Source: Bolinopsis microptera (Eukaryota; Ctenophora; Tentaculata; Lobata; Bolinopsidae). From it: 64,000 bases of DNA. The notes beneath the pieces were generated by a model that worked only from the letters and a program-made list of their open reading frames with translations, did no database searches and was not told the DNA's origin. This document shows positions 5,222 to 55,522 of this stretch, in pieces. The position numbers and the translations under genes are program-made. The first letter of the stretch is position 1. Each line of letters begins with the position of its first letter. Location: contig NC_087080.1 in assembly GCF_026151205.1 (NCBI RefSeq), forward strand, positions 2,893,096 through 2,957,095, written 5' to 3'.

Positions 5222-8065
5222 GTTAAACACTTGTTAATTAATCTACATTTATTTTTATTGGATGATAATTGATAACTAGGTTATAGTACTCTCAAGATGC
5301 ACTTCATAAATTAGGGGAGACCAAGTAGTCGAATAAACTAAAAGCTGTTTCTTTTTTCAAATTTGATTCAGATGTTCCTAAGTCGAGGGGGGTTTCCAAA
5401 TGATAACGCTAGTGTAATTTTGACACAATAGCTATGTGTTAAACTGATAGTGATTACGGAGGGGGCCCCCGGGGGAGGGGGGGGGGGGTTAAAAATGGTC
5501 AAAAAATTGATAACGTAATAATATGTGAACGCCTCCTAAGTGATTAACTTATGATATTCACGGCGCAGGACAAAGCGGCCATACTCCACAAGTTTTCTGT
5601 AACCAGAACCTCCATGTCCGAACGAATAAGAAATGATTTTGGTTCTCAAAAAGCGGACAAAACGATCATGTTCAAAGCAGAGTCAAATAGCATCGCATCC
5701 TCGCAGGTAACGCGCAGTTTGATCAAAGTCGTCAAACGTTATTCAAAATTTTTGATTTTATGTGACATCTATGAGTCTATGTGAAACGCATTGTTAAAAT
5801 GGCAATTAAAACTGTCTTTAATATTGCATTCCATTTTTCTTCACGACGTTTTTCAAAACGGGACACGAAATGCTAATGATTTCAGTCGTGGCTGATAGCG
5901 GTGGGTAAAATCAGAGACTCTATCATCAAGTCAGTGACGATGAAATTAGCGGTGATGGAGAAAGGGGTTAACCAGATACGGGACACTCACGAGGTAATTT
6001 TCTTCTTTTGTTACACTCACGAGGTAAGCTGGTAACTTTCCTCTTTTGTTACTTATTTTCAAATAATTTGTTTAACTCGTTGGTTAATAATTATGATATA
6101 CTTTCTTAATGCAAGCAATAATTTATGAAGGTATGGCGATTTCAAGCGATATTTCTTATTATCTTAATCGATACAGCTTTTGGTACTGATAAGAAACGTG
6201 AAATAAATCGATTAAGATAATAAGAAATATCGCTTGTCATGTCAATATAAACGCGAATAAAATGACAAACTTTCCATTTAAATATTACTAAAAAACCAGA
6301 AATGATTAATCGTCATTAAAAATAATTTGGTTTCAACACTCATCAATCTTCATATACAATCATACCAGTTTGAAACCACTCCATACTGGGAATTGGGATG
6401 GATATCCCGCATTCAAAGCGAGCATATACTTCAATTTTGTGAAACCACTCTGAATAAATCAATTCATGATCAGTTTATGATCAGTCTATGATCAGGTTAT
6501 GATTCTACACTTCAACCTGAACCATTGTTGCTTTGAAAACATCGCTGCTCCCAGAATGTCCCTATGCTCTTGTTATAATGCTCCTCTATTACATGTGTGC
6601 GGTAAAGGTCGCCTAAATCGAACTCTTCTCCGCAAAATGTGCACTCAAAATTGTCTTTTCGTTTCTCCTTTTCTTGGCTTGACTTTGACTCCGCCACATC
6701 ATCTGAAGTCTCTAGTTCCGTAATAATTTCCTGAGGACCGCTTGTTTCGGAAGATAGCACTGCACACAGGTCCGAATAGGTTGTATTATATCCTGATGCT
6801 TTCCGCAATTCCTTGTTGTCTTGAAGCATAATGCTGTAATGATTTAGCATTTCTCCTGAAATGCTTTTTACATTCTCGGTATCCACCATAGTTTCTGGAT
6901 CGTCTATGAAGAAGGGGACAACACAAGTTTGCTCCTGAGAATAAATGTCATAAAAATCTCAAAACTCGTTTATAATTGTTTATCAATTTAGTTATCGATG
7001 ATAACTTAAAAGATCCAGGTATGATCTGCAGATGGTTAAAAAAGGAGTATGGAGGCTGAGGGCACTTTACTATCTTATAGTATCGAATATGTATTATTAC
7101 TTAAGTTGACTCTAACCTCAAATATCAGGCTTTTGTGTCTCTTGTTATCTTCTGCAATTGGATCAGGTGAAGTCATCGTGACTTTTTCATAAGATCCGTT
7201 GTCGTTTTTCATTCCCTGCCGTGAAGAGAGATTACTTACTTAAGGTTAACTAGCAGGACCCCGTCTAACCCTAAAATGGTGTCAAGACTCAAGAGACTAA
7301 AACAATTATTACCTATTTAATTCGCGTTTTTGACACCACTTGGGGTACCAAATTTTGGGCTCTAAAACTCCTATTTCTTGGCCAATTTTTTATTTTTTCA
7401 TGCTGATTTGGAGGCCATTAAAGCATTTGACCCAGTCAAAAAAGTTTCAGTTGTATATCTTTGACGGTTTTTGCAGAAATTGGCGTTAAAGTTGATGCCG
7501 TGGTGTCAGTAAAATGGCACAGATAAATATATATATATATATCGTCTCGCTTTATATTTAGTAAGATGATAGATTGCACCGTATTTTATCTTTGAAAACC
7601 TCTTCACCAAAACAGGTGTCCCACTTTTAGGAGGGGTATCGTGGCTAATATCTTTACTCATATCACTTATACTTTATCTCATATTATGTTCGTACCAAGT
7701 TCACCCCATACTTCTAAACTAAGTCACATCCACAGTCGGTAACACATTGCGAGTACATTGAAAATGAAAACATAAAAAACTCTCTGAATATAAACAACAT
7801 TTAAAAAAACTCACCTCTGAAATACTGGCCACGTCTCGCTTGAGATGTGTTACGTCCTGTAGTATCTGATGGAACTCTCTGTTTCCGTCCGCCTGTTTAA
7901 CCATGTTCATTGTTATGCGATCTTCTAACTTATGTTGCTTTTTCTGTTGCATGCCTGGTTATTGGCTAATAATCAACAAATTGTTCATTTAATTACACTA
8001 ACAATATCACGTGATTTGATACAAACTTTGAAAAATCACTATTTTACCTCCCACTTTTCTCAAAT

Positions 8066-8097
<32 letters not shown>

Positions 8098-11000
8098 CTA
8101 TATGATCATACAACATATTGCTATATTAATTGCAACTGCACTTAAATAAAAGTGGCATCAAATTGCTATTAAAACGTGTATTGTGATCGAACCTGAGCAC
8201 TAGAAATAAGAAAAGTAACAAACTAATATTGTACAACGCACAACTAAGGGTGGTCAATGTAATCATGTTGGAAGATAAGGAAAACAATATATTGTGTGGA
8301 GTGAGTCCTTAGGAATCCTTATATTTTCCAAGTTTTGCTTTCGCTTTTTTAATGCTTCCTATACAGTTTCAAAATAAATGTAGAACGAGTACAGTAACCG
8401 TCTCAATTATAGTATATTATGATATAAAATATACAGTGTAGTTTGGGTAGTGTTGTAGTAACTGAATGGCGCTGACTACAAATACAGGGTGGGCCAAAAG
8501 TCAGTGTGCAAACGTTGGGTCTTATACCTCCGCCGTGTTTTATATTTGAGAGCTGTTGCTTTGCAGATGGCATACTGTACTTACTGGTTCGAGGATTCCG
8601 TCGTCAAAATTTGAAAATTCGAATATTTTAGACCACGCCCATTCAATATTAAAACACCTATATTGTTTTCTCTGAACATGCTGAACGCCTAATTTTTTCA
8701 GAGACGGTAGATTATCAAATGTTGCATATGATCTGAAAACATGAGGCAAAACGGATTAGAAATGACGAAGTTATCAAGCATTTTGTGTATCTCGTTAACA
8801 AAATTGACTGGGTGATTATGAGTAGTATATGATGCATTTTTCAATAGCCATTTTGGGAAAAAGTGGGGCACACATAATGAAAGTAAGCATATTACGTAAT
8901 GTTACCGGCGGCGTCCTTGTAACTTGTGTGATATCATGTTCCATGTGGAAGCTATATTGGATGTAACTTGATTATTATGTCATGTTCATTGCTCACAGTA
9001 CTTTTGTGATCTTATCTTGTCTCGATCTTACCAGATTAGAGCGGGCCACAGTTAAGTTATAATGTGCCATTATTAATGATGGGTATTATTATTAATGACG
9101 GGTATTATTATTATTATTAATAATGGGTATTATTAATAATGACGGGTATTATTATCAATGACGGGTATTATTATTATTAATGACGGTATCATTATTATTA
9201 ATAATGACGGGTATTATTATTAATGACGGGTATTATTATTAATGACGGGTATTATTATCAATGACGGGTATTATTATTATTAATGACGGGTATTATTATT
9301 AATGACGGTATTATTAATAATGACGGGTATTATTATTAATGAATGGTATTATTATTATTAATGACGGGTATTATTATTATTAATGACGGGTATTATTATT
9401 AATGACGGTATTGTTAATAATGACGGGTATTTTTATAAATGACGGGTATTATTGTTAATGACGGGTATTATTATTATTAATGACGGGTATTATTATTTTA
9501 GTGACGGGTATTATTATTATTAATGACGGGTATTATTGTTAATGACGGGTATCATTATTAATGACGGGTATTATTATTATTAATGACGGTATCATTATTA
9601 TTAATAATGACGGGTATTATTATTAATGACGGGCATCATTATTAATGACGGTATTGTTAATAATGACGGGTATTATTGTTAATGACGGGTATTATTATTA
9701 TTAATGACGGGTATTATTATTATTAATGACGGGTATTATTGTACAAGTCACAAATAATAATAATAATAATAACCGTCACTAAAAATAATAATTCCCGTCA
9801 TTAACAATAATACCCGTCATTAATAATAATACCCGTCATTATTAACAATACCGTCATTAATAATAGTACCCGTCATTAATTATAATACCCGTCATTAATA
9901 ATAATACCCGTCATTAACAATAATACCCGTCATTAATAATAATAACCGTCACTAAAATAATAATACCCGTCATTAATAATAATAATACCCGTCATTAACA
10001 ATAATACCCGTCATTTATAAAAAATACCCGTCATTATTAACAATACCGTCATTAATAATAGGGTAATATTATTAATGACGGGTATCATTATTAATGACGG
10101 GTATTATTATTAATGACGGTATTGTTAATAATGACGGGTATTATTGTTAATGACGGGTATTATTATTTTTAGTGACGGGTATTATTATTATTATTATTTG
10201 TGACTTGTACAATAATACCCGCCATTAATAATAATAATACCCGTCATTTACAATAATACCCGTCATTATTAACAATACCCGTCATTATTAACAATACCGT
10301 CATTAATAATGATACCCGTCATTAATAATAATACCCGTCATTATTAATAATAATGATACCGTCATTAATAATAATAATACTCGTCATTTATAAAAATACC
10401 CGTCATTATTAACAATACCGTCATTATTAACAATACCGTCATTATTAACAATACCGTCATTAATAATAATACCCGTCATTAATAATAATAATACCCGTCA
10501 TTAATAATAATAATACCATTCATTAATAATAATACCTGTCATTAATAATAATACCCGTCATTAATAATAATATCCGTCATTAATAATAATATTCGTCATT
10601 AATAATAATACCCGTCTTAATAATAATACCCGTCATTGATAATAATACCCGTCATTATTAATAATACCGTCATTAATAATAATACCCGTCATTAATAATA
10701 ATAATACCCGTCATTAATAATAATACCCGTCATTAATAATAATACCCGTCATTATTAATAATAATGATACCGTCATTAATAATAATAATCCCGTCATTAA
10801 TAATGATACCCGTCTTAATAATAATACCCGTCATTGATAATAATACCCGTCATTATTAATAATACCCGTCATTATTAATAATACCCGTCATTATTAATAA
10901 TACCCATTATTAATAATAATCCCCGTCATTAATAATAATACCCGTCATTAATAATGGCACATTATAACTTAACTGTGGCCCGCTCTAATCTGGTAAGATC

Positions 11001-14000
11001 GAGACAAGATAAGATCACAAAAGTACTGTGAGCAATGAACATGACGTAATAATCAAGTTACATCCAATATAGCTTCCACATGGAACATGATATCACACAA
11101 GTTACAAGGACGCCGCCGGTAACATTACGTAATATGCTTACCTTACTCGGGAATATTATAGCGGGTTAATTTATGACTGGGAAAATTAATAACCGGGAAA
11201 AATATGGCGGAATTTCCCAAAACCCGCCAAATTATCCCGGTCATGTATTTACCGGTGGCCGACCTTTCAAGTTTTTTTTGAGAGGTCAACAAATTTTCAA
11301 CCGAAATTTCTGTTTTTGTTACTTGTTAAAGAAGTTATTTCAATTTACAGTTACTGATATTACTCAGAAATAGAAAAAAAGACACGTCTAGTATTTAAAG
11401 GAAAATAAATCTATAGCAATAATAAGTCAAATCTTCATTAAAGCGTATTCTCATTCTCATTATCGCTAATGTCCCCTCCATTATCATTATTGATATCCCC
11501 CTGCTGCTGCAGACCGTCAAATTCGAAGTTGTATTGTTGTCTTAACAAGACTTTCATTTTGTCCGCTAATGGGGCTACTGCTCTGAAGGTCAGCCGGACT
11601 CACCGGAGCTTAATTTCCTGCCCACCGCTTGGTATTGGGGAACGTCTTGGCTTTGCATCTTCAACTGCTCCAGTAATCAATCCACCGTGGACCATGAAAT
11701 AGTGGCACAGTTTACTCACTTCATGGGCAAGAAAAGTGAGAATCACGGTCCACCCTGAAATCTGATTTCTATAACCAAATTGTGATTTTTATAACGAAAT
11801 TATGGTAGCAACCGCCAATAAAGTTACAGCCCTCCATCCACTGCTTCAAAAGTCTTCTCTAGCACATATGAGACTTCAGGTAAAATATAATACTATAATA
11901 CCTCCGCCACTGAGTGCTGCGCGCTATAATTCCCGACAGCTTGCTGGAGGGAATTTGCGGGCACGAAGTTGCGGAGGTATTATATTTTATAATACGTTCC
12001 GGTTCCGATTGCAGAAGGGGTGTAATCCGATACGTGCGCATCATACAATATAGTGTCTAATATATAGAACGCCAGTGTTATTTGTTTTGAAACTTGCCGC
12101 CAGCCAGTCTGAGTCTGGGCTGATAATACCCTCGCTTCTCTTGCGGGAATAATGAGCAAATTATCAGCCCTCGGTGTCCCCGAGTTTTAGTGGATATAAT
12201 TCCCGGAAGGTATTATAATAATCACCACCCCCTTGGAACCCCATAATCTGAGTCGGCGGGTTTTTTTATGACTGGTAAAATTTTTGACCGGGAAAAATAT
12301 GGCGGAATCTTCCAAAACCCACCACTTTATCCCGGTTATAATAATCCCGAGTAAGGTACTTTCATTATGTGTGCCCCACTTTTTCCCAAAATGGCTATTG
12401 AAAAATGCATCATATACTACTATTATGTGACACCGTGACACGACACCTTAATTGGGCACCCTTAACAATTCCCATAATGTTTAACGGGGTAGTTAACGGG
12501 GTCACCTTATCACGTGATTAGGTAAACCAATCACCTGATCACACGTAATGAATAAACTCGTTATGCTTCATATCTCGGTCATCTGAGAAGCTACAGTTCT
12601 AATTTTTTCAGGACAAACGTAATTCGAATGGCCAAACACAATTCAATATAATTTAGCTTGATCCGACTATCCAAACTATCAAATAAATGTGAAAATGAAC
12701 CTCCATTTGAAAAAAATGAACGCGAATATTTTTCGAGTTGACAAATTCCTCGAACCAGTGGTGGTACTAAGTCATACCAGAAGAAAGTATTTCAATCGGG
12801 CACTCAGTGACTGAGCTATTAAGGCCAACGTTTGCACACTGACTTTTGGCCCACCCTGTATATTCTATAATATTGTGATTATTACTATTTTGGTGTAGCT
12901 GAGTCTAATTTATCACTTACAACAATGGATAAATACAGCAAACATAACAGCCGTTATTGATATTACCTCCCGAAAACTTATATTATAGATCCCAGCTTAC
13001 GAAGTCTGACCAAAAGTGTTTATTTTTAATAAATGATATCGTTTAGTTAGCAAGAACTAGTTTTTGCTTGGGCCAGCGTCCCGACTATGCTGCAGGGAAA
13101 TCTGTACCGAAAGGACCGTGGCCGAACGCTACACGAAAAGGAAATCGGCCCCTCGTTCCTAGCTTGCTAGGTTCGCCATATTGTTGTTGTTGTTGTAGTT
13201 AGCAAGAAAGGAACCATGAAAGCTTTTAAAAACGGAACAATGGTTTATTTTAAATATTAATGACATCAAAATATTGACACCTGCAAGATAAAGAAACTAC
13301 ACTGATTACAAGAAATAATGGTTGACAAGCAAAAAACGGAAACGTAGCTCTTCCTACGGAAACGTTCAGCTAATTTCCAGAGCCATGATTCCTGACCAAT
13401 TCAAATAATATAAAGTACACGTCATGCAAAGTGCTCAAAGTCCACATTGCATAGCCACACAGTATAGTGGTAGTTTTCCCAGATGTGAGTTAGTATACAG
13501 TAACCTCACTAGTATCCTGTGTTAATACTGAGGGGTACATGTGGTGTAATGTGGTGTAGTCTCCATGTACACCTGGTCTGAGGGCCCCTACGTTAATTGC
13601 TTTTCAGACTCTATAATGATGCTTTTCAGTGGGGAGGTCTCAATAGACAGTTAAAGAACACAATATAGAATATAGATTATATATATTTACTGTATAGATA
13701 TTAAATGTTTACTTTAAAGATGTTTTATACTGTATAGATGTTTACAATATTATACAATGTACAGTAAATGTTTCACAACTTTCGCTTTTGAAAATCTCAT
13801 GAATTGAGATTGGTTCAGGTATTAAAAAGTTAGTTCAAAATAAAAGAAATTAAATCGGGGCGTATGCAATAATAAGGCAGTCACTAAAATCAATAGAACT
13901 CCATCTGGTGGCATCTAAACTCGTTAATTACAACACCCATTATTACTGGATGGAGTATTTTGGCAGTCAACTTAAGAATAATTACTACTCCCACTGGCTG

Positions 14001-17000
14001 CCCTGCAGATTTGTTTAATAAACTTGCCGCATAGGATCATAATATATAATACTGGACGTCTATACAATGTGCATTTGTTGTGGGACACACGGCCCCCCCC
14101 CCCCCCCCCCCCCCCCCCGGGGACACACTCAACTAAGCGAGTAAGAAATGCCCTGCAGAATAAGTTAACACGGTCTTACCATTGGCTCTGAATCTAATTA
14201 ATTATTTATGTCTATTGTTTAATTAATTATGTCTAATTAATTGTGAATATCGGGCTCTATTCTAAATTAAATGTGTGTTAATGAACACAGCACGTTTTGG
14301 TATAGAGTAGATGCTACACTCTGCTCAGAGCTCACGTGCTCTACTAAACCTGAAAGACCCTTATCGGCGGAGTAGTGTATTGTTCAAATAAGTTAATGAC
14401 TAATAACATAAATGTTAGTACTCCTTAGCATAATGTGAATACTCTTATAACATAATTATAACAATTAACATAATGTAATAATAACATTACCCAGGAAGAA
14501 GATTTCAACTTATACAACTACATTTCTGCAAAAGAACAGCTCTGTCTACTATACGAACTCACAGGTAAAAGTCAAAAGTCCAGCAAATAATAATACAAAA
14601 GCCGATGAGTAACAATATATAACATTGAATAATGGTATCTATATATTTATAATCATAGGATTGTGGCATTATAATGTATAGCATTGTAGCACATATTATT
14701 ACATGTATTATTAGCAAATCCAATTAGTTACATGCCGATTGCAGATTATTAGAAGCAGACTATCAGAAGAAGAGGATTGCATTTCCGAGAATTTCCTTGA
14801 AAGATTATTTTTAAACCGCCTCCCGATTCACAATTTGAAAGGAAACATTACATAACAAGTTAAGTCATATCTATATCTCCTGAACCATCTCCGAGACGCT
14901 AACCCTAACCCCTGCCCCAGGTCTGTGCGAAGAAGCTAACCCTACCCCCTGCCCCAGGTCTGTACGAAGAAGCTAACCCTAACCCCTGCCCCAGGTCTGT
15001 ACGAAGAAGCTAACCCTAACCCCTGCCCCAGGTCTGTACGAAGAAGCTAACCCTAACCCCTGCCCCAGGTCTGTGCGAAGAAGCTAACCCTAACCCCTGT
15101 CCCAGGTCTGTACGAAGAAGTTAACCCTAACCCCTGCCCCAGGTCTGTGCGAAGAAGCTAACCCTAACCAGCTAACCCCTGCCCCAGGTCTGTACGAAGA
15201 AGTTAACCCTAACCCCTGCCCCAGGTCTGTGCGAAGAAGCTAACCCTAACCAGCTAACCCCTGCCCCAGGTCTGTACGAAGAAGCTAACCCTAACCCCTG
15301 CCCCAGGTCTGTACGAAGAAGCTAACCCTAACCCCTGCCCCAGGTCTGTACGAAGAAGCTAACCCTAACCCCCGCCCCAGGTCTGTACGAAGAAGCTAAC
15401 CCTAACCCCCGCCCCAGGTCTGTACGAAGAAGCTAACCGTAACCCCTGCCCAAGGTCTGTGCGAATAAGCTAACCTTAACCCCTGCCCCAGGTCTGTACG
15501 AAGAAGTTAACCCTAACCCCTGCCCCAGGTCTGTGCGAAGAAGCTAACCCTAACCCCTGCCCCAGGTCTGTACGAAGAAGCTAACCCTAACCCCTGCCCC
15601 AGGTCTGTACGAAGAAGCTAACCCAAACCCCTGCCCCAGGTCTGTGCGAAGAAGCTAACCCTAACCCCTGTCCCAGGTCTGTACGAAGAAGCTAACCCTA
15701 ACCTCTGCCCCAGGTCTGTACGAAGAAGCTAACCCTAACCCCTGCCCCAGGTCTGTACGAAGAAGTTAACCCTAACCCCTGCCCCAGGTCTGTGCGAAGA
15801 AGCTAACCCTAACCAGCTAACCCCTGCCCCAGGTCTGTACGAAGAAGCTAACCCTAACCCCTGCCCCAGGTCTGTACGAAGAAGCTAACCCTAACCCCTG
15901 CCCCAGGTCTGTACGAAGAAGCTAACCCTAACCCCCGCCCCAGGTCTGTACGAAGAAGCTAACCCTAACCCCTGCCCCAGGTCTGTACGAAGAAGCTAAC
16001 CCTAACCCCCGCCCCAGGTCTGTACGAAGAAGCTAACCCTAACCCCTGCTCCAGGTCTGTACGAAGAATCTAACCCTACCCCCTGCCCCAGGTCTGTACG
16101 AAGAAGCTAACCCTAACCCCTGCCCCTGGTCTGTACGAAGAAGCTAACCATAACCCCTGCTCCAGGTCTGTACGAAGAAGCTAACCCTAACCCCTGCCCC
16201 AGGTCTGTACGAAGAAGCTAACCCAAACCCCTGCCCCAGGTCTGTACGAAGAAGCTAACCCTAACCCCTGCCCCAGGTCTGTACGAAGAAGCTAACCCTA
16301 ACCCCTGCCCCAGGTCTGTACGAAGAAGCTAACCCTAACCCCTGCCCCAGGTCTGTGCGAAGAAGCTAACCCTAACCCCTGCCCCAGGTCTGTACGAAGA
16401 AGCTAACCTTAACCCCTGCCCCAGGTCTGTACGAAGAAGCTAACCCAAACCCCTGCCCCAGGTCTGTACGAAGAAGCTAACCCTAACCCCTGCTCCAGGT
16501 CTGTACGAAGAAGCTAACCCTAACCCCTGCCCCAGGTCTGTACGAAGAAGGTAACCATAACCCCTGCCCCAGGTCTGTACGAAGAAGCGTACCGAAGCAG
16601 CGAAGAAGTCCTCTCCCTTTTCCGACAGTACGTCTCTAATCTGAGACAATGTCAGATAGCACCCTGGATAGAGGAGTTCATTGAGAGGGATATATCCTCC
16701 TGGGCTGGGCTGTGTCTCAATGATGATGTGAGCGTCAAGGACCTGGCCTTGCAGCAATTCAACTCTCTGCAGCTCTGCTCCCTTATATTTAGACGGTTGG
16801 TTTACTGTTCAGTTGGTACGTTTTGTGGACGAAGTTGTGAGTGTCATGTTAGAGGAATTTTAGAGGAATTTCGGTACATTTTAGGGGAATTTCGGTACAT
16901 TTTATGGTAGTTGTTGGAGTAAGATGATCCCTAATTATAATAAGTGCACTATATAATTGCTGTACTGAGTAAGTCAATAACGTAGGTCAGGTTTCAACAG

Positions 17001-20000
17001 ACTCTTTTTACTACACACACTTATAACTTAACGATGATAAACACTGTTGCGGGCTTAGCTCTAACTTTTCAAACTTTTAAACTCTAAATGTTGAGAAAAG
17101 ATCTGTTTTATATCTGCTATTACTGGTGGTTACTGGTACTCCCGCAGGATAGCACATCAACTCTCTGCACTTCAAAACCCACGAGATCTCGCGAAGAAGG
17201 GGCTCAACTTTCTCCTGCAAACTGTTCAAGAATGTAAACTTCTCAAGGTGAAAACATACCCACTCAACATTTTACTTACCACTGCTCAAAATTTAAATCA
17301 TTGACGTTTGCCAACAATTTCCATGTAATGGCAAAAGATATAGTTTAAAGGATTTGATAAAAAATAGGCTCTTGAAGGTGCAGTACTCAATTTAACACAC
17401 TTAATCAAATATGTACCTAGTTTAACGTTCCAATAACCCCATTACCTCTGGTCCCCCAATAACCCAGTTACCTCTCCCAATAACCCAGTTAACTCCCCCA
17501 ATAACCCAGTTACCTCCCCCAATAACCCATTTACCTCCCCCAGTAACCCAGTTACCTCCCCCAGTAACCCAGTTACCTCCCCCAGTCACCCAGTTACCTC
17601 CCCCAATAACCCAGTTACCTCCCCCAATAACCCAGTTACCTCCCCAATAACCCAGTTACCTCTCCCAATAACCCAGTTACCTCCCCCAGTAACCCAGTTA
17701 CCTCCCCCAGTCCAAGTACCCCGAAGGAGCACTGGTAGTGTGGGTTTATATCGGATGTATTGAGCTACTTGAGGCTGTAAAGAAGAGTTCACCCCTCAAC
17801 AACATGGTAGGTTTAAGAGTAGGATTATTTAACGACTTTTTTTGTTGATACCTGTTAATAATAAAACTATTAAAAGGCTATGTGATTTGTCAGGAAATGT
17901 AGCAGTTTTATGCCTTTATATTACTATGACTAAATAATTTGTGAGACAGACGAAGAACTACATGAACTGTAATAAAATAAAATAAAGCAGCCTCATTGAA
18001 AATAAAAACTCGCATATAAATATAATAAACGAGTTGGCCATAGAAAGAAGAAACTTTGTATCTGGAAGGAAATTTTTGTATGTGGTCAAGTTGGTAACAA
18101 TAACAAAGTTAATCATATACACAAATAGATGTCTCATAGAAGAAGATTGGGCCAATCGCCAAAGGAACGTACGGTCTGCCGTCTGGGGTTAACAAATAAC
18201 GATGGCGCACTGTATATTACACATTATATTGTATCATGGGCACGTATCACATTACACATCTTCCAATATTTTAATGTTTGCCAGACCGGAACCGAGCTTT
18301 TGTTTTCTAAGCTAAAGTTGTTTCGGAGAACATTAAGCCATATTAAGGCACTTTGTAAGTAGTGTAGGCTCTCTGTAAGTAGTGTAGGCACTCTCTAAGC
18401 TTACAAACGTTGTCAAATTTCAAAAACTTGTCGATTACAACGAAACTCGCAATTACAACGAAACTCTAGTGGAGATTGATTATATTTTAGTATGTTAATT
18501 AATGCAATATATGTAATAGGGGCTACCAAGTCCCTACGACATTAACACATAACATGCGTGCAAGTTCAGACAAAAATAACATACAGGATGGGCCAGAAGA
18601 GACTGCCCACACGCAACCCTTAAATACCTTGAAATTTACCTAATTTAAGTAGGTTCAGAATTACACAAACATTTCAGAGGTTACAGGTATGGGTAAAAGT
18701 TAATGAAATATATAGGATTTCTTATTACATTACTAGAAAGCCCGTGATCACAGGGAGGAAGGTAATAGTATTCTTTGGTAGTCAGTTTTCATAATTATAG
18801 CATCAAAAAATATCCGTCACAACCGAGTATACAGCCCATTAAAATGTTGCTTGCACTGAAGTCTGAACACAACGTAATTACCACAAAACCGATCAAAATG
18901 ACGTTAAAACAATCATTGTACGTACGTACGTTTCAACCGCGTTACCATAGGTTACTATGCAACTACCTATTTCTCATCTAGTTTGTACGTGGGCGGTAGT
19001 GCAAACAAAAACAATTCTTTGAATTATAAGTAAGATAAACAAATTACACACAGGTTTGCTATTGCTGGGAGACTGCCAACCCCCTCTAGCCAGCATATGT
19101 AATAAGTGCAGAGTTGCTGGTCCATAAGGACCTTATCACATACGTACGTCTTAATCACATACGTACTTACCAGAAGAAACTGCCCACATACAACCATCTA
19201 ATAACTCGCATGATTGTGATCAGAATTACACAGAAATTTGAAAGGTTACAGATATGAGTCAAAGTGAGGTTCCCAAAAATTGTCGTAAAATTTTTCAATC
19301 GAAGCTGATTTGGCATTCCCTCTTTTTGTATAACCCTGGAATTGCTCACATTAGTCAGAATTGCACAAATTCTACGGAAATCGTGATATGGTTTTAAGTT
19401 AGGTTTCCAGAAAATGTTATCACCCAGGACCCCTAATATATATAATTGTATATTCAAATTCTCAGTTAACGTCTGTAATATTATATATTGGGAACCGACG
19501 GCGTAGGACACGAGGGTGAAGGGACGATCACATGACTCACTTAATCATGGAACCATACACCGTCCTTGGGTCCTTCACCCTCGTGACCTCTACCCTCGTG
19601 ACTTCCGCCATAGTGTCATCATATACCCTTAACTTAATATCATAATATGCTAGAACACCCCGTAGATTTACATGATCACCTCATCAAGAAGACACGGTAT
19701 TCTAGGATCGCTAATTGATACTCATATCACCTGTTCATTTACATGATCACCTTATCAAGAAGACTCACGTCACTTTACACAGCATAAACTGGTTACATGA
19801 TTGATAGAGAACGACTCATTAACATGATCACCTTATCATGAAGACAAGGTATTCTAGGATCGCTAATTGATACTCACGTCACTTTACACATCCAATCTTA
19901 GCATAAACTAGGCTATTAACTGGTCACATGATTGATAAAGAACGACGTAATTAGCCCCAATTAGAGAAGCTCAAGTTATATATAACTGACCCCATCCAGT

Positions 20001-23000
20001 ATTTCCATTCTATACCCCACCAGTTTTGTTACAAATTTTGAGTAGGTTTATCTCCTCCAGCACTTACTGTGCCGAATTTACATTATCATCACTGAGATTG
20101 CAGTTTAGTTTCTTTCGACATTTTGTGTCCAATACCTATTTCTATGTAAAATCCGGACTGGAATATTATTTATGAGTCGTATAGTTGAAATGTTTTCTTG
20201 GGTAAATTTCTATTGATCCCGTTTGATATTTTTAGATCATGAATACGATGGTGTCACATTGAAACGTTGAATAATTCCTTTCCTGATAAGAGCCTTTTCC
20301 TTGTCGCATCAAACGGGAAATTTACCCAAGAAAACACCTATTTCTATGTTCTATATCACTTACAGCGGTTAAAACTTCATTATTTGAATAAATTGTCGCC
20401 AGTTTTACATTTCCTAAGATTCAACTCGAAAACGTTAGTTCTTACTTACTGTCGTCCTGAAAGTGAGTTTTTCCTTGTTTCGTTCTCTGAAGCTACGGTA
20501 CCACTCCTCATCAGGTCTCAGATTTATAACAGGTGTGGGTGGGCGGTGATTTTTAACATACTCCTCAATTAAATCCAAGGTTTGCTCCTGTCCCATGTGA
20601 CAGCCAAGGTCGTTGTAGTACTGCAACAGTAGAACAATGTAATGCTCCTCCGCGTCTGATGGATGGAAAGTCTTCTGGACGAGCCTTCCTCTCAGTCGAC
20701 TGTATAAAGTTGATTTTTTGACGGCAAAATACTTGCTTGCATGGAGAACTGTCATACGACTTGATAAAACTTCTTCCACAGCTTTCTTTAGGCCATCTTT
20801 ATCGACAGGGGGCTTCTTTAATTCGTAGTCTTTCGGCATAGTTACAATCTTCTAACTAGCTTTAGAGGAAGAATATTTAATGTAAACAATCACTCGTGAA
20901 ATAGTTGTTTCTGCAGAAAACTTGAATGTTTTCACTAACGGGGCCGGGGTACAGAACAAAGAGAGAAAAATAACTAATAAGACAAAAAGCACTTAGATAA
21001 GGACCATAGATCATGATGCGTTGAATTTGATTTCAAAACTAAACTAATTTTCTCCCCCAATCACATACAATTCTAGTAGATAGGTAGATCACATACCACT
21101 ATAAACACAAATTGTAATCTATGTTATTTTATATGGTGAGCATTAGCTGACTTCTAAAATGAAATCTCCAGGTCAGTAATGGTGATATGCAGCTGCAGTC
21201 ACCCGACGATAAACGGGTGTACAATCTAAAGGTGGGAAAGGTTGATGGTAGTCATGTACACTTGAAAACGACGTAACTCGAGGATGGTCGCCTTTGATGT
21301 GAATACATGACTACCATCAATCGTGACCTATTATACATATATTGTATAATCATATTAATGACGTACGGCGGTGTAAGGCACAGACATATTGCATACGAAA
21401 CGACACACACTCTTTACCACCCCGCTGCTATGCGACAAAGATATTGTATAAAATATAACTAAATAATTTACACAATACGGTACCCATGTCTGAGCGGCTC
21501 TCCTCAAAAACTTTATCTTCTCATCGAGGCAAAAAGTTTAAAAAACACGGGTCTCATAAAATCAAAAAATACATATATAAGTCCGGAATCGCACTATTGA
21601 CCTAAAAATACACTTCGCAAATCGCATCCCCACAACAGATTGGACTTAAGTCACTTTAGTCGCCTATACACAATCTTATATTGTTAAGTTATAGAGTATA
21701 GCATTGAATCTTATAATTATTGTAAAACCTTCTATGAGGATAATTCTAGATTTATACATTCTGAATTGTCATGAACCGCAGTATAATACACGTAGTAAGT
21801 CACTTGGCATAAGTGAATGTGGCATACTGTATTCAGGGAAGTAGTTTTTACAGATTTTTGATAAAACGGAGTTGTGTTATTCACCTCCCCCACCTATTAA
21901 TTGTTTCACCCCCCCCCCCCAACTATTAATTGTCACACCCCCCTCAACTTTTAATTGTCTTACCCCCCCCCCTCAACTTTTAATTGTCTCACCCCCCCCA
22001 ACTATTAATTGTTTCACACCCCCCCCCCCAACTATTAATTGTCACCCCCCCCCCCCCCCAACTATTAATTGTTTCACCTCCCCCCCAACTATTAATTGTC
22101 ACCCCCCAACTATTAATTGTCTCGCCCCCCCCCCCCCCCCCCTCAACTTTAATTGTCTCGACCCCCCCCCCCCCCCCAACTATTAATTGTTTCACCCCCC
22201 CCCCCCCCCCCAACTAATTGTCACACCCCCCCTCAACTTTAATTGTCTCACCCCCGGCCCCCCCCCCCCCCCAACTATTAATTGTCTCGCCCCCCCCCCC
22301 CCCCCCCCCCTCAACTTTTAATTGTCTCACCCCCCCCCCCCCCCCAACTATTAATTGTTCACCCCCCCCCCCCCCCCCCCAACTATTAATTGTCACCCCC
22401 CCCCCAACTATTAATTGTTTCCCACAGGACGTGCCAGAACCACTAGCAGTAGCAAAGGGACAGTTGTACAACCTAGCAAGAGAGAAGCTGTACCAGCTGG
22501 GAGTCCTGGTGGGTCATGTGGGGACTGAGACCCCACTTTCAGAGAGTGACATTGAGAATCTCTTGGCTGGTACGTGTCTTTTTTGCTAATCTAATTTTAC
22601 AGCTACACAGTAAAATTAGCTTAGCATTGGTTACCAACAAGTCAATGACATAGCTATACGTATCCTTTCTCCGTACACAAGCTTGTGGCGCTGTTCCGAC
22701 AGGCACCACGGGTTTTAGCATGTAGCATTCTTTTACTTACTTTTAAAATTCTACAGGCTATCTATAAATATGATAATAGTGATAATATACCATGTTCAAT
22801 GTTCAATACATTTCGGCCCATTTTATATGTTTGTTTGCTGTACATTTGTATATTTGTTATTTTGTGAAAGTTTCAAATCAAATCAATCATTTGAATTAAC
22901 CCGCCCCCCAGGAGCGAAGAGAAGTGGTAACAGGCGCGGAAGTAGTGCGGAGACCAGACCCTCCTTTCCCAGCCCCGGCTCCAGCATCACCTCTGATCTC

Positions 23001-26000
23001 CAGAAGATTCTCACTGACAAATCATTTTTCCACAAACAGTATATCGACCTGTGTCAACTCTCCATCGTATCGTTTAAACAGGGTTCCTGGACCCACCACG
23101 CTCAGCTCATCATGATGCGACAAGCTCTCTACTTGAGACATAGGGGTGAGTTGTGGGGGTTTTTATATATACACAATTTGTTGGAATATTGTAAAGTTAT
23201 AATATTGAATGCTATGCCCCGCTGCCTCTTTTATGCTCATTTTGCCCATCTAATTGTAAAACATTCTATGAGGGTAATCCTTTATATTTATACATCTTGA
23301 ATTAATAAATAAACATCTTGAAATAATAAATAAACCAATAACCACATTAAATTCATTCAATATGTTGGAATCTTTTGTTGTAAAGTTATAATTACAATAT
23401 TGAACACTCTTTTTCAAATATGCTCGTCACCAGCTAGTTCATACATCTTGAATTGTTAGGAAACTCAGCGTAAAACATTACGCAAGATTCATTGTAAATT
23501 AATTGTCGTGTTAAGGCAACGTTATATACTACACTATCGAATAAACCAACCTGAGAGCACTTAACCAAATTTGGCAAATTGTTCAGCTTAATTGCGGTGT
23601 TTTTTGTCTCTAAATTTGCCACACATTTTGGGCAGGTGTGGAATCGCACTATTTGAAAAATATTACTACACACTACATGTTACCTCAGTACTTTACCCAT
23701 AAATTAATAACAACATAAATTAAATTCGCAAGTCAAACTCTGTGAAAACAACTCTTTTTCACGCAGGTATACAAGCTGAATGCCTAAACGCAGAGACCCA
23801 CCTCAGAGATGTTTGCCACGCTTACTACACGCAGGGATGGCACAAGCTGGCTGCTTACTCCAGAGTTAAACTATGTGATACTCAACGTCATCTCGGTTAG
23901 ATATTTTATATGGTTTTATTTTGAACTTGAAGCTTCTCTTTACATTTTCTATTGTTTTTATCTGGCCGGTGTGCCATTCTGGGTCTCGCTTTGTGTCTTG
24001 TAGCCAACGTCACCAATAAGTTGAATCAGATGACATTATCAGACCAGTGCTTGCTTCACGTCAGTATAAACAACGTACTCAGACATCACAACACCACAGT
24101 CGATATTATCGCATTCCAGACGAAAAATGTGGCGGATCACATATCGGCACGTAAGAGATCGCGTGTCAAGACGTCACAATCGCATACCCAGCGACATCCG
24201 ACTCTGCTGGGTCATTGGAGCTGGTCTCCAGTCTTGTGACCATAACGTATCGGATGTGTCTGACAAGCATTCCAGACTAGACGTGGTGCTTGTCAGCCGC
24301 AGTTACCAGTATAAAAGGTGGAAAACACAGATAGCAGAATATCATTTCTCAAACTCTCATTCCACTAACAGAACAACTAGCAAACAACCACAATGCAGAC
24401 TACCAGCAAGCCATTCTTCCTCCCTGGAATGTACCAGTATCTGGGAAGTGGTCCTGAACCTCAGTTCTACACCTCTCCTCTTCCCTCTCCTCCACTGTCT
24501 ACTGGTTCTCCTTCCTCCTGCACTGTCGGTGATCTCAGCGAGGACTTTTCGAGCGGGTACGACATGGTGCCTTCTCTCCAGCCTCTCATGGACATGAAGA
24601 TGAGCAATCTCTATAACCTTCCCTTGGGACAGCTTATGTCTTCCCTCTCTCGTCCTACACCCGACAACAACATCTCTGTCAGATTAGCTGGAACCCGTTC
24701 TGAGAAGACACCATCTTGGGAACAACATCTCCCTGGACTGCCTACTTTCGGAGAACTTCCTCTAGTTCCCGATCTCTCTCTTTTGTCGGACCTACCCGAC
24801 CTAGCCACCCTCCCTGGTCTGTCTTCACTAATACCCACTCCTTACATGTCAGCATCAATGTTACCCTGCTCCGCTGATTCTATGGTCCCTAACGTGAACT
24901 GCTCAGCGTTCTCGTCTACCTCCATTTCGCCCTGTCCATCACCACCTCCCTGCAGCAGTCCCTCCACCAAACCTCTGTCCTTCACCCAGTCCCACTACTC
25001 TCTTCCCTCACACACCCAGTCCAGAGCCGGACCCCTGAAATCTGACCGAAGGAACAGAACCAAGTTCACTGCCGAACAGCTGGAGTACCTGGAGTTGGAG
25101 TATCATAAGTTGGAGTTCGCGGTGGCAGACAGAAAGATGGAGATAGCTAAAGAGACCGGGGTACCTCCCAGGACTATTGCCTTGTGGTTCCAGAACAGAC
25201 GAGCTAAGGACCGACGGGATCAGATGAAGCGTGCTCAGAACTACAGTGGCGAATTGTAGTGGAGATTCAGTTGTTTTTGTTTGTCGTATGTGTATAGTTT
25301 TGGTAAACGTAAAGGTAATTTTTTTAATAGTAATAATTTAAGTAATAATTTAATCTTTAAGTAATAATTTAATTTTAATAATACCAGACAATATTTAAAT
25401 GTTTTTTGTATTAAGAATCTGTGATAGCGATAAATTCTATTATTTTTAACTTGCTTGATCTGAAAACCCGCTTATTTAATTTCGCTAGTCCATGACTATT
25501 GATCAATAATCAGTATTTATAAACATATTATGACTTCTTTATCAAATGCCATTTCTAACAATTCAAGTTCGTCCCACAAATTTTAAAAATTTGTCCCTTC
25601 GTCTACAAATTCCATTTCCAATTGTGCTATCAATTACAATGTAGTCTGAGGTCAGCGAAACACCAACTTGTAGTGATCATTAATCAACTGTCTCAATCAG
25701 CTCATATTCAGATTACATTCACACATATAGTTGAACAGCACGAGATAAGTGGCAAACAAACTAATTGACTTCAAGTTCGTCGTTTGGGATCGGAATAATA
25801 GATTGATAACCGACCATTTCGGGTCCGGCAGCCAACCCCAGACCGATCGGTTCCTAGTCCCGGCTATTCTAACCCACGTGATCTGCCTAACTTTCCTCAT
25901 TTATTCTCACTAGTAGCAATGTCTGATATTATCTTTGGAATATAGAAATATTTTTAAGTCTCCTATCCACACCACGTTCTTTATTCAGAACTGCTGGAAC

Positions 26001-29000
26001 GAGAACTAGTGACATGCTGTCATCTGAGCTCAGAACAGGACCATATCACTCAAACAGACAGACAAAGATACAGTGAGCGTTTGATGGAATGTGTGGAGAA
26101 GTTTAATGGAACTCAAAGAGAGGATCAAATTCTAGTTCCTTTCAACCCCCTCTTCCAGGTCGGTTTCTTATCTCTAGTTACTGAATGAAAATACTTTTGG
26201 TTAAACTAAAGCTTCAATAGTTTGTTCAATTCAAGAATGGATGAAGGCACTATGCTTATTTTTACGCTTGGGATAGCACAACTAACAATGATCATCTGTT
26301 TGCAGTACGAATTACTAAGTGATGACAATGAGGCGTGTATCGTGGCATTTGAAGATATAATCAGAGTAAAAAACAAGATCCTGATTAAAATGAAAGTTCA
26401 CAACTGCTCCACTGAGCCGATACCCAACGCTGTGGTTAGTTTTACTATATTTTCAGTTTTTCGCTTAATCTGGTGCTTTATCACTCCAGATGGTTTTCGA
26501 ACCATATTCGGTGTTATCACTACTCACTAGAATAAAGTAAAAGCAGTACATCAACTTATGTAATATTAAATAATATTATTGGTTCAAGACAAGTAGAAAA
26601 CCCACTGTATAATCATACAGGTAAGTATGAAGCTAGATACTGGTAAAGAGACGCTGAACAGAAGTAGATCCCAGATATCTGCAGATATCAACGACTTCTC
26701 AATGGTTCCTATTGAGAGCAACTCTTCAGATCTAGATGATGGACTGTACGGTATATCCCTGAAAGCCGAGACGGAGCTTATGAACGATGACTCGGAGAGA
26801 AGTGAAACAAGATATACAATGATTCTCTCTTCTGATCTTACCGAGCTAAAGCCAGGTCAGTATTGTAGTGCAGATATACAATGATACTCTCTTCTGACCT
26901 TACTGAGCTAAAGCCAGGTCAGTATTGTAGTGCAGATATACAATGATACTCTCTTCTGACCTTACTGAGCTAAAGCCAGGTCAGTATTGTAGTGCAGATA
27001 TACAATGATACTCTCTTCTGATCTTACCGAGCTAAAGCCAGGTCGGTATTGTAGTGCATGAAGTTACTCGACACCAGAGGCAATATATAAGTGCGGTGCG
27101 CAATCACAGTATTGATCTCACACTGCAATTTTTTGCACCCTCGGCCGCTATTCTTTCTATCAGATTAGTGCACTTTCTGACACTGTAGTGTGGATGGTTT
27201 TATCCGATTTTTGTAGATTTTTATGGAGGTTTTTTTTTTTAAATAAATAATTTAAAGAGAGGCTGGGCCTGGTTGGCCCACGAGAGGATAGCATATGAAT
27301 GCTTTGCCTACCTCTGGGGTATGGCAGTCCTGTGGGAGGATGCCAGTGGAATCAAGATGTGTAATCAAGGATGATGGTAAGTGTTGTGGGGTGTGTCATA
27401 GATAAACGCTTAAGTGGTGGTTGAGTGTGGATTTTATGGAGGTTGTATCATTGTAAAACGTACATTGTGACAGTCTAGATGGCGAAATATTTTTGAAAAT
27501 GGTTCTAACACAGCTTTGAGAATAACAATTACATTGGGTGAATAGATTAGGTGAACAATTACTATGATGCAGGCAATTATCTGCGCTGATCCAGCATTCT
27601 GCATATGTAAGTAGAGTAGTTTAATTGCTGATTCATACTTAATAGTTAATGGTGACTCGATAGAAGTCATGTTTTGCACCCTGAGCAAAATTTATTGTAG
27701 TTGTACAACAAATATGATCAATAACGCTAATTTTTCCTTATTGGACTTTATTTTTACGGACATAAGTTAAAAGTTGCAGATGCCAGATGCTACAAGTTAA
27801 GCCCTAGAGTTCATTTTAATGTCCTTTCATTTTAATATCCGTTCGCATTTTGGCGAACGTTTTGAATTGTAAGTAAATAGACCATTGAGCAGTCGCGTTT
27901 ATTTTAATGTCCGCTCAAAATTATGCCCGTTCATATTATTTCCGGTGGCGCTAGGATAAAATAACACCCGAAAAGCTATCCGATAAGCTCAGGCGGAGCT
28001 TTCGGACTGTAAGACTGAACAACTTGAAACGTTGAAGAACGCCGTTAAGACATTTGTTGTTGACTCACTTAAAACACAAACGTACCGTTCAATCGTGAAG
28101 AATTCACGGCCAACTGAGTAAGTCATCAGCTCAGAAACGCTTAAAAGCGTAGTAAAACGTGTTGTTGAGGAACCAGATATCAGTCGCAACGTCATTGTAT
28201 TTGGTCTTTCAGAAGGGAGCGATAGCGAACTCATTGACACAGTTAGCGAGATTTTCCAAAATATTGGACAGAAACAGAAGATCGTTGAAGCGTACAGAAT
28301 TGCCAGGAAATCTAAGGACAATTCAGTTACAGCATCATTGATAAATGAGCTTACGTTATTCGCTTAAGTTATTGCAAAATGGTCATTGATTCCAATAAAT
28401 ATAAAATAAACTCCGCTGTGCCGTGCGCTTATTTACTAATTCTGTACTCGCCTGCGTACACTGTACAGCAGGAGCAGGCCTGCAGGCATCGTGCTACATG
28501 CGATTTTACAAAAAATGTTCGACTTCAAGTTAGACTTTCAGTTGTTGTACTGTAATTCTGTATTCGTATTGAAACGTGCTTACTTGCAATGATGTTGATG
28601 TAGTAACGTCACTGAGAGCAGGAGTGATGTGATAAACTTGCACAGGGGCTTCAACTTCAAGTTTCTTCTTGGGTAGGACAACAAAAGGTTCATTTAGACT
28701 GTCGGTGAACTTGTCCATCGTAGACTGTGCCGTCAAAGCTGAGAGAGCTCGAAGTTTTATATTGATGATTCTGATTTTCCTGTAATAGTTTCAAATTACA
28801 AACAGCGTAACCAATTTGACAAGAAATATAAAGTTTAAACACAAAATATTAAGTAGTATATATTATATATAGAACAAATAATGAATATCAGTCACGATTG
28901 GCAATTATCCACATCGGACATGATCGCTAAACAGAAACTGATTAGATATTAACAAATCGGAAAAATCACTTGGATATGAAGTTTATGAACGGATAGTATG

Positions 29001-32000
29001 TACGTATATTGACACCAAATATGAAAACATAAAAATATGCAACTTACCCAGTAATAGTAGGTGAAATTCTACGAACTTCGGACTTTTCTGTGACATCGTA
29101 CAAAGCAAGCAGGTCGACAGCAACAGGACGGTAGAACTCAACAATCGAAAGTTTTTTCTTCCTACCAGTGTTAGCTTCTTCGACGAGAAAGAGTAAATGT
29201 GATAAAACATGACGTAGCAGAGTTGGACGACAAGTCACAAGAGAATTGAAACGATCTGGTTTAACAAAATCTTCAAGTTTCATGGTGGGCTCAAAAGTTC
29301 ATAAAACTGGTGTTATTGATGCAGATGGCGTTGTTTTATTTATAGTTATATATTTATTGAATATTGAGGCTAATTGTGCATGGGAATTGTGAAGCAAAGA
29401 TATTGGGCACATCAAACGATTTTTTTGCAGGGCATTGGAACTTCGGTAACATTAATTTAGTTACCTTGAACAATGTATTAAAAGTGTCTATTGATCAAAT
29501 TAACATCATGAGTTATGTCGTTTAATAAGCTTAGGGGCTATTAAGGTCCAAATTGTTACGAAGCTAATTGTTCGATCAACCGCAAGTTACATGATTATAA
29601 CAGTTTAACACCCCGTCATGGGTGGGTAGCACTAGCACCAATTTGTCACTAAATGGCAATTCCAGAAAAAATGAATCCATGGGTTCTAATTATTATTAAT
29701 AGTATTAGTATCATAGGTAAATTCTCGTGCTTACTCATTACACAAGAAGAATTTATAGCGTGATGAATGCAGATTAGCATATAAAATTCACATGGCATGA
29801 CCCAATTCATGATAATATTATGTTAGTATGATTCATTACCTTGGGACCTCAGCTTTAAATTGCAGTATTTTGGCATCCCCCTGCATGTTCCAACAGGAAA
29901 ATAGCTATTCAATCAGTCAGAGTAGAATGTAGATACTGCGATCTCTGATATATATACAAACATAGCCCGAGCTGCGACTGTTCACCACTACAATTAGTAC
30001 ATGATAGTTAAGTGTCATCAAACAAATGATACGACGTATTCCAGGGTGATCTGCTGAAGACTCAACTAGTTTCGGCCTTTGAGGGCCATCCACAGGAGTG
30101 TCACCTCAAATTATTTGTTATATAGTAGTGTTATGTTGAAAGTATTCCGGGGCGATTGTGGCTACAAAACTCGATATTGGCTTGTTTTTTCCACCTCAAC
30201 GTCAGCGAAAGCTCTAACGATTAGTACATACTACATACCTCAATACACATTACGGCCGGTTTATATTACCATGACCCATGCGATCCTGAGGGCTATAATT
30301 AGTGAAAGGTGTTATCACGTGATCTCCGTCACATGACTTCTATCGAGTCACCATTAAGTATGAATCAGCAATTAAACTACTGCAATTACATATGCAGAAT
30401 GCTGGATCAGCGCAGATAATTGCCTGCATCATAGTAATTGTTCACCTAATCTATTCACCCAATGTTATTGGTTTTCACAAAGCTGTGTTAGGACCATTTT
30501 CAAAAATATTTTGCCATCTAGACTGTCACAATGTACGTTTTACAATGGTACAACCTCCATAAAAATCTACAAAAATCGGATAAAACCATCCACACTGCTG
30601 TCAGTTGTGTACAATGAGATAAGATTGACAAGCTGACAACTATGGTTAAGGTCTAACGTTTTTGTGAGGTAACTTTAACAACATCGGAAAGAAAGAATTG
30701 CCTTGAATTCCTGATAAAGATCAGGAAAAACACATTTATAGAACAATGTTCTTCTAAAAACTGTTCTCAAAAAGTTCGCACTGACACCTTTATGTTGTCT
30801 CTGCTCGAGACCTAACCATTAAAAGAATCTAAGCAGACTAAGCACCTTAACCACATAAAATATGTATATTATTTTACCTACTCCTTTTTAGAGTTAAAAC
30901 TATAGGTCCTCGGCATTTCGACAGCTATCGAATTGCTATGATTTATTATTACTATTTAATATACAACATGAAACGGGTATATAACTAAAAAGCATTCGCA
31001 CATCAGGAAGTAACAACGTATCTATGTCCGTCCTGCCGTCCCACGCAGGTCTCTACGGAGTCTCCAGTCTCCAGATCCAGGTGGGCTGTGTTATCTTCAG
31101 ACTGAAGTCCCCGGTGGTGCCCTCCTGGCTGGAGGCGGTGGAGGTGGACATGGAAGCGTCTGGGGTGAGTGTAGAGGTGGTTCAGCCAGCTGCTGGGGTC
31201 TGGTTATCTGATAAACAACAGGTTAGAATTACTCTCTTTCCAACTCGGTCAACAGGTTCAACCTGCTGCTGGGGTCTGGTTATCTGATAAACAACAGGTT
31301 AGAAACTTTCTTTCCGCCTCGGTTCATCCTTTAAGCCGTAGTACATTTATATTACATTACACTGGAGCTTACGCAGTCAACACAGTGTAATTTCATCCAG
31401 TATGCGCCGCGTACGGCTACATAGGCGCGCGGCGCAGACTGGAGGAAATTACAGCTCGATTCAGTGTAATGTAATATGTATGTCCTACGGCTTAAATTTA
31501 ATACACAATTTTAAACTCTCTTTGTTGTGATACATTATTTTTCTTTGTGGTTGTGTTGGAAGTTTCACTGTGTATACCTAGTATTCCTTATTTTTCATAT
31601 AGGCTGACGTTTAAAACCTCCCAGTTCTGTACTCTAGCTATCAATACTGACAAAGCTAACGTTTAAAAACCTCCCAGTTCTGTACTCTAGCTATCAATAC
31701 TGACAAAGCTAACGTTTAAAAACCTCCCAGTTCTGCACTCTAGCTATCAATACTGACAAAGCCTTCCACTCGTTGAGTATCAGTATCAAAACTGCGACTG
31801 CTGGACTGGATCTAATCCCTGTGGAAAATGGAACATACTCTATAGAGGTATGATTGTGATAACGTTAATCCAGTGCCTCTACGTACTTGTTTGCATTTAT
31901 CAGTGTGAACTTGAATATTGAATAAAAGTCTACGGATTTCCCTATTGAGTGTCTACAAGTTCTGTATTTAACGATCTAATCTATCTTTTTCAATTCAGGG

Positions 32001-55295: not shown

Positions 55296-55522
55296 TAACA
55301 GAAGATTTAAGGCAAGGCCAATTCTAGATGCATCTTTTTGCAGCGTTTAGGACCTGTGCAGTTTGGAGCTTATTTTGGAGCGGTGTTTTTCAGAAACGAT
55401 ATCAAGTGTTTCAGCAACAGCAATGATTTTATAAACAAAGGTATGAACTGAAAGTGAACAAAAAAGTAATACCTACCTCAACATTCGAATAGAATTAAGT
55501 AAACACAAATCAGGCGACTTAC

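What the first reader, a model, noticed from the sequence alone, without database searches (positions are those of the whole stretch)
14897..16590. A minisatellite built from a 3' splice site and the start of its own exon
About 45 units of 37 bp lead directly into TRAPPC10 exon e. Each holds CTAAC (branch-point-like), a C/T tract, CCCCAG and the first 14-15 bases of the exon. The array is thus a run of decoy acceptors ahead of the true one. Since 37 is not a multiple of three and a TAA follows within about 20 codons, use of an upstream copy would abort the protein.
Basis: partly seen in the sequence, partly recalled or inferred. Interest (0 to 1): 0.9.

Follow-up and report, generated by a model that had tools for sequence, protein, structure and literature searches.

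The report
Splice-acceptor minisatellite in comb-jelly gene
A gene that appears to come from a comb jelly carries about 45 tandem copies of the end of an intron plus the first letters of its own exon, so that some forty look-alike splice sites stand before the real one; repeats of this kind are known from lancelets, and others like it occur in the same genome.

Summary
Tandem Repeats Finder gives 45.2 copies of 37 bp at 14894-16588. A typical unit carries a branch-point-like CTAAC, a C-rich tract, an AG and the first 15-16 bases of the exon that the array runs into at 16573. The gene is TRAPPC10. All 44 upstream starts would give a premature stop; 43 of them still follow an AG. The repeat was found at this one locus only, so it was probably born in place.

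It is not unique. Other arrays sit at exon boundaries of the same gene, and three other loci show the same anatomy: a laminin-EGF exon, a CFAP69 exon and an open exon without family match. The kind is known: lancelet 'mirages', reported not to disturb splicing.

Most likely the array is a mutational by-product removed with its intron. The copies look like decoys, but no RNA shows that they compete. Bolder reading: each unit is also a good donor (CAG|GTCTGT), so a wrong splice could be spliced again and corrected.

The parts
14495..14564 (+). TRAPPC10 exon upstream of the array, ends ...CTCACAG|gtaaaa
   Evidence: joined protein matches PF23036
14565..16572 (+). intron of 2008 nt that holds the array
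14894..16588 (+). minisatellite, 37 bp x 45.2; unit = CTAACCCTAACC, C-rich tract, CAG, then GTCTGTACGAAGAAG of the exon
16536..16572 (+). last unit before the real exon; the only one of 45 without a yUnAy branch-point motif
16573..16795 (+). real exon (G)LYEEAYRSSEEV..., 223 nt, followed by donor GTTGGT
17452..17709 (+). 21 bp x 12.3 array ending at the AG of the acceptor for the exon at 17711 (intron end only, no exon bases)
21880..22418 (+). C-rich array with ACTATTAATTGT units ending 9 bases before the exon at 22428 (intron end only)
26810..27058 (+). 62 bp x 4 donor-side array: exon end ...GAGCTAAAGCCAG plus GTCAGT, exon end at 26855
31190..31304 (+). two-copy donor-side duplication ...AACAACAG|GTTAGAA (copies at 31190-31228 and 31266-31304); not reported by TRF
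31603..31762 (+). 53 bp x 3 acceptor-side array, CTCCCAG followed by about 30 exon bases; third copy is the exon at 31731

Best explanation
It is a boundary minisatellite of the 'mirage' kind. A short tandem duplication copied the intron end (branch point, C-rich tract, AG) together with the first 15-16 bases of the exon; the likely break points are a short similarity between intron (CCGAGACGC) and exon (ACGAAGAAGC) at the two edges of the array. The array then grew by slippage or unequal exchange. It is transcribed and removed as part of one 2-kb intron. The last acceptor is used because only it lies directly before a definable exon (223 nt, then a donor), while upstream copies would define ever longer exons that soon meet a stop. 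The array is a largely neutral passenger with some cost in mis-splicing. Shown: anatomy, single locus, gene, frame consequence, recurrence. Inferred: birth mechanism, use of the last acceptor, exon definition, neutrality.
For: Unit equals intron end plus exon start, with the family match running through the junction. Found at one locus. Units differ by scattered substitutions and three 45-bp units, as in an expanding array. Same anatomy at three other loci with other sequences and further boundary arrays in this gene: 4 of 10 acceptors against 0.43 by random placement, P=0.00045, windows chosen after seeing the arrays. Lancelet mirages have the same build and are reported to be spliced normally.
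Against: No RNA evidence that 16573 is the acceptor used. The last unit has the weakest branch-point match of the 45, the opposite of what use of the last acceptor would suggest. In 30 myosin exon loci arrays are not enriched on the acceptor side (1 against 1.3), while the donor side shows 5 against 1.5, so acceptor boundaries are not generally favoured. The donors of this gene show 1 of 8 against 0.43, P=0.36.
Confidence: 0.73

Rival explanations
1. Self-correcting recursive splicing. Each unit is a zero-length exon site, AG|GTCTGT. If an upstream copy is picked, the joined RNA reads CACAG|GTCTGT, again a donor, and can be spliced to a later copy until the last is reached. The array would be a ladder of ratchet points.
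For: CAG|GTCTGT scores 8.8 bits on a matrix of 28 donors of this genome, above 18 of the 28 donors left out in turn; 0.6% of 620 intronic GT sites score as high. The upstream exon ends in CACAG, so the donor context is kept after a wrong joining.
Against: The other arrays lack it: AG is followed by AG, AC and TT, and the laminin array's TAG|GTTCTT scores below all 28 donors. So it cannot be the general reason why such arrays are tolerated. The donor set is small and chosen by eye. No RNA.
Confidence: 0.12
2. Regulated unproductive splicing. Upstream copies are used in a set share of transcripts, which carry a stop and decay, so that the array tunes TRAPPC10 output.
For: 43 of 44 upstream starts follow an AG and 44 of 44 lead to a stop.
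Against: Stops follow automatically because the branch-point motif contains TAA and 37 is not a multiple of three, so they are no sign of selection. A ciliary and a laminin gene have the same kind of array. Lancelet mirages are said not to give aberrant mRNAs.
Confidence: 0.11
3. The array, or its length, is an assembly error.
For: The published B. microptera assembly was made with wtdbg from PacBio reads (passage); long arrays can be mis-sized (general knowledge).
Against: Units carry their own variants (13 variable columns in 41 units; three 45-bp units), which a false repeat would hardly create; several arrays of the same build exist elsewhere.
Confidence: 0.04

Closest known systems
[quoted passage not shown]
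   Same: Tandem copies of a splice boundary with part of the adjoining exon. BflGb6 repeats the 3' end of an intron with the 5' part of exon 2, as here; donor-side cases also exist, as here.
   Different: Reported units are 150-160 bp in BflGb6 with 6 and 3 copies, and 10-72 bp in Adh3; here 37 bp, about 45 copies, each with branch point, tract and AG, in a different animal lineage. Length polymorphism, somatic instability and normal mRNA are reported there and untested here.
[quoted passage not shown] PMC4974935, passages)
   Same: Tandem copies that carry AG|GT, able in principle to act as both acceptor and donor.
   Different: The model makes a new intron from an exonic segment; here the array lies inside an intron whose end it copies.
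Internal tandem repeats at exon-intron boundaries of human segmental-duplication genes (PMC2812944, passages)
   Same: Minisatellites at exon-intron boundaries that bear on splicing.
   Different: Those were compared between recent paralogs, on average 30-bp units repeated 4 times, and linked to novel introns; here one long array in a gene whose exon is single-copy.
Recursive splice sites / ratchet points (recalled; no paper seen)
   Same: Acceptor and donor back to back, AG|GT.
   Different: Known cases, as recalled, are single sites in long introns; here some 45 in a row in a 2-kb intron, with use not shown.

Membership tests
Mirage (boundary minisatellite) | Tandem minisatellite repeat of an intron/exon boundary | tested here: met
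   37 bp x 45.2, runs into the exon at 16573
Mirage (boundary minisatellite) | Unit contains part of the adjoining exon | tested here: met
   First 15 bases identical in 34 of 44 upstream copies
Mirage (boundary minisatellite) | Copies carry splice signals | tested here: met
   AG before 44 of 45 starts; CTAAC in 44 of 45 units
Mirage (boundary minisatellite) | Edge units escape homogenization | tested here: inconclusive
   The last unit differs from the consensus at two positions and lacks the branch-point motif, but it is one unit and no tree was built
Mirage (boundary minisatellite) | Regular splicing is not disturbed | not testable with these tools
   No RNA data at hand
Mirage (boundary minisatellite) | Length polymorphism and somatic instability | not testable with these tools
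   One assembly only
Recursive splice site | AG directly followed by a good donor | tested here: met
   CAG|GTCTGT above 18 of 28 donors left out in turn; matrix from 28 donors chosen by eye
Recursive splice site | Stepwise removal seen in RNA | not testable with these tools
   No RNA data at hand
Intron gain by tandem duplication | A new intron arose from the duplicated segment | tested here: inconclusive
   The array lies in one intron that fits the family match across the junction; whether that intron is old was not tested, no relative being held

The most novel reading that the evidence does not exclude
The 37-bp array is a ladder of some 45 zero-length recursive splice sites: nearly every copy is both acceptor and donor, so that an early, wrong choice is spliced again and the error repairs itself. 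That would make a string of decoys harmless and would be a new way for an intron to carry tandem acceptors.
Probability: 0.12. Interest if true: 0.85.

Novelty: new member of a known kind. Interest (0 to 1): 0.56.

Why it matters
Some forty near-identical, complete-looking acceptors stand in a row before one exon, and the normal protein needs the last. That is a natural experiment on how the spliceosome picks an acceptor: the copies differ in order and context, hardly in sequence, so scanning, first-come and exon-definition models predict different products that one long-read cDNA run could tell apart. Exon-including acceptor arrays at four loci of what appears to be a comb jelly (this one, C2, CFAP69, laminin) carry a lancelet curiosity to a distant lineage; one search of open-licence papers for ctenophore with minisatellite gave two listings, both off the subject by title.

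Tried and rejected
PDB sequence searches with the exon protein found no TRAPPC10 relative; the Pfam profile did. The resemblance to human TRAPPC10 that first guided my exon reading was recalled and is not used as evidence.

A codon-usage exon finder was dropped: I had taken the kinase loci as oriented, but 14 of 30 lay on the minus strand and were read on the wrong strand, and it missed short exons anyway. The same mistake affects the ACC/DON labels; one search repeats that step with the right strands.

RNA structure that hides the decoys but not the true site was tested and rejected: six units fold less stably (-33.4) than 60 mononucleotide shuffles (mean -47.5), and the predicted chance that the 8 bases around AG are unpaired is equally low for the decoys (mean 0.002) and the true site (0.003).

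A telomere-repeat origin (CTAACCCTAACC resembles telomere repeats) was considered. The unit is explained by local intron plus exon sequence and matched at one locus only, so it is not needed.

Rows dropped before counting: the second pattern search listed only its first places, C1:1-3.77 Mb. By eye I took eight clusters there. A telomere-like 6-bp run (about 2450464-2450706) and a two-copy match 1.6 kb apart (1271900, 1273506) were left out, as was a pair of unlike hits near 806 kb; six remain. For the four of six called 'no exon' I read only the 3' flank by eye; their 5' flanks were fetched but not examined. Donor matrix: 28 donors chosen by eye (8 from this gene, 15 of 30 myosin loci, 5 from other loci); exons with unclear ends were left out. 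One search used 10 acceptors and 8 donors of this gene; the exons from 26621 to 31847 were assigned by reading frame and gene order. Joined, they gave no TRAPPC10 match, only TRAPPC13_C at E=0.055, below cut-off.

Full report
What is there. Tandem Repeats Finder reports 14894-16588 as 45.2 copies of a 37-bp unit with 92% matches. Cut at the exon-like start GGTCTGT, the array gives 45 starts, the last being the real exon at 16573; the 44 spacings are 41 of 37 bp and 3 of 45 bp. The consensus unit, written from the exon start, is GTCTGTACGAAGAAGCTAACCCTAACCCCTGCCCCAG. AG precedes 44 of 45 starts, CTAAC is in 44 of 45 units, and the first 15 bases equal the true exon in 34 of 44 upstream copies. 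The two CTAAC motifs place an adenine 18 and 12 nt before the last base of the unit. Over 41 units of 37 bp the mean identity to consensus is 97.7% and 13 columns vary.

The gene. The exons at 14495-14564 and 16573-16795 are in frame across an intron of 2008 nt. The protein read from these and the following exons matches PF23036 TRAPPC10_1st at E=7.5e-10, residues 3-112 to profile positions 204-315, straight through the junction; the ORF at 31980-33119 matches PF12584 TRAPPC10 at E=1.2e-9. A genome-wide search with PF23036 found two matches, both below the cut-off and both in this window, at 5536-5739 and 16572-16757 (converted to window coordinates). So the exon start at 16573 is well supported by homology, not by RNA. 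The exon matched once in the genome and the two-unit query matched this locus only.

Frame. Joining the upstream exon to each of the 44 upstream starts gives a stop in 44 of 44 cases: after 4 residues in 1, 18 in 39, 33 in 3 and 34 in 1, counted from the junction codon; only 16573 stays open. One of the 44, at 16129, lacks AG, so 43 look usable. The stops follow from the build: the branch-point motif contains TAA and 37 is not a multiple of three. The unit before the real exon is the only one of 45 without a yUnAy motif, which speaks, if anything, against easy use of the last acceptor.

Origin. The left edge reads CCGAGACGC|TAACCC and the right edge ACGAAGAAGC|GTACCG. The intron and exon flanks resemble each other where units join, which fits a tandem duplication between short similar sequences. 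This is an inference by eye.

Not alone in this gene. Arrays also end at the acceptors of the exons at 17711 (21 bp x 12.3) and 22428 (C-rich units with ACTATTAATTGT); these hold intron end only. A 53-bp x 3 array holds acceptor plus about 30 exon bases, its third copy being the exon at 31731. On the donor side a 62-bp x 4 array repeats an exon end plus GTCAGT at 26855, and a two-copy duplication repeats an exon end plus GTTAGA at 31221. With 10 acceptors and 8 donors read in the gene and 13 TRF arrays, 4 acceptors and 1 donor have an array at them; random placement gives 0.43 and 0.43, P=0.00045 for acceptors, 0.36 for donors and 0.001 for both. With only the 5 arrays of about three or more copies it is 3 acceptors and 1 donor, P=0.00015 for both. 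The windows were chosen after seeing the arrays, and several of these exons rest on frame and gene order only, so these values are indicative.

Not alone in the genome. The first pattern search showed one long array among its listed places, at C2:3081334-3083537. When fetched it proved to have the same anatomy: mostly 43-bp units ending CTAACTCCTTCACCTCCCCCCAG and beginning AGCTCACCCCCGTAT, 51 exon-like starts, the last running into an open exon of 186 nt, 50 of 50 earlier starts leading to a stop in that frame. That exon has no Pfam match. A second, looser pattern gave 2773+4006 matches against 1121+748 for the reversed pattern; many of its listed matches are plain minisatellites. Of six clusters kept from its listed part (C1:1-3.77 Mb) two run into coding exons, a laminin-EGF exon (E=1.5e-16) and a CFAP69 exon (E=7.6e-12); in four no exon was seen by eye in the 3' flank. 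In the laminin case the match of unit and exon start is only partial (GTTCTT against GTACCT) and the array fills the intron from shortly after the donor. The CFAP69 locus also shows a donor-side array of its next exon. Against a general rule: in 30 myosin-head exon loci, some overlapping, the acceptor side shows 1 array against 1.3 at shifted positions and the donor side 5 against 1.5, 5 also being the highest of 32 shifts.

Organism. The genome has 264,652,675 bases in 232 contigs, C1 has 26,206,493, and the listed kinase hits fall on C1-C13 and the small C68. Values printed for Bolinopsis microptera are 265 Mb, 13 chromosomes, largest 26.2 Mb, 346 scaffolds (table passage, passages). The fit is very good apart from the contig count; no tool gave a name.

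How it may work. Intrinsic acceptor strength cannot single out the last copy, since the copies share its sequence. What differs is context: only the last copy is followed at once by the exon body and, after 223 nt, a donor. Exon definition (established knowledge, not tested here) would favour it. Predicted RNA structure treats decoys and true site alike. A second possibility is peculiar to this unit: it reads CAG|GTCTGT. On a matrix from 28 donors of this genome, chosen by eye, that scores 8.8 bits, above 18 of the 28 donors left out in turn, and 0.6% of 620 intronic GT sites reach it. A wrong joining to an upstream copy would re-create CACAG|GTCTGT and could be spliced again. The other exon-including arrays lack a good AG|GT, so this cannot be the general reason for tolerance.

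What is known. [quoted passage not shown] globin BflGb6 repeats the 3' end of an intron with the 5' part of the next exon, and the authors' RT-PCR suggests regular splicing (PMC3087553, passages). [quoted passage not shown] The original Adh paper is not held. [quoted passage not shown] Searches of the open-licence library: minisatellite with splice acceptor and branch point gave one plant review, minisatellite with acceptor splice site none, ctenophore with minisatellite two listings off the subject by title. A search for recursive splicing, ratchet point, tandem repeat and minisatellite (any two) listed 10 of 1,424 papers; each of the 10 held only the two repeat terms.

Verdict. It is a new member of a known kind, in what appears to be a distant lineage, long and with complete-looking acceptors. 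Its interest lies in the clean test of acceptor choice that it offers. The decoy function is unproven.

Noticed in passing
24381-25259 (+): Homeobox ORF (PF00046, E=3.5e-15) on the same strand between TRAPPC10 exons near 23100 and 26621, so apparently a nested gene.
   Followed up: partly
9069-9740 and 9761-10955: Two 19-bp minisatellites that are reverse complements of each other, side by side; arms up to 97% complementary over 146 nt, a possible long hairpin in a TRAPPC10 intron.
   Followed up: partly
26611-26626: The acceptor CATACAG is followed directly by GTAAGT, a textbook donor, so this may be a recursive splice site rather than, or as well as, an exon start.
   Followed up: no
L063, about 930-1201 in the minus-strand sense: CFAP69 locus: tandem copies of the next exon's end plus GTGAGAA, a donor-side boundary array beside the acceptor-side one.
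   Followed up: no
L077 and L084 (C3:9154012-9154203 and C3:9154255-9154485): Two neighbouring myosin exons match the same stretch of the Myosin_head profile (105-167 and 102-167) with different sequence; perhaps mutually exclusive exons.
   Followed up: no
54286-55303: 293-bp unit, 3.5 copies, 99% matches: a very recent tandem duplication.
   Followed up: no
3387-3602 and 8540-8755; 3831-4031 and 12591-12791: Identical translated stretches occur twice, so dispersed repeats with several copies lie in this window.
   Followed up: no
16562-16573 and each unit: Each acceptor holds CCTGCCCCAGG, which can form a small CCTG-CAGG hairpin over the AG; predicted pairing there is high in decoys and true site alike.
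   Followed up: partly
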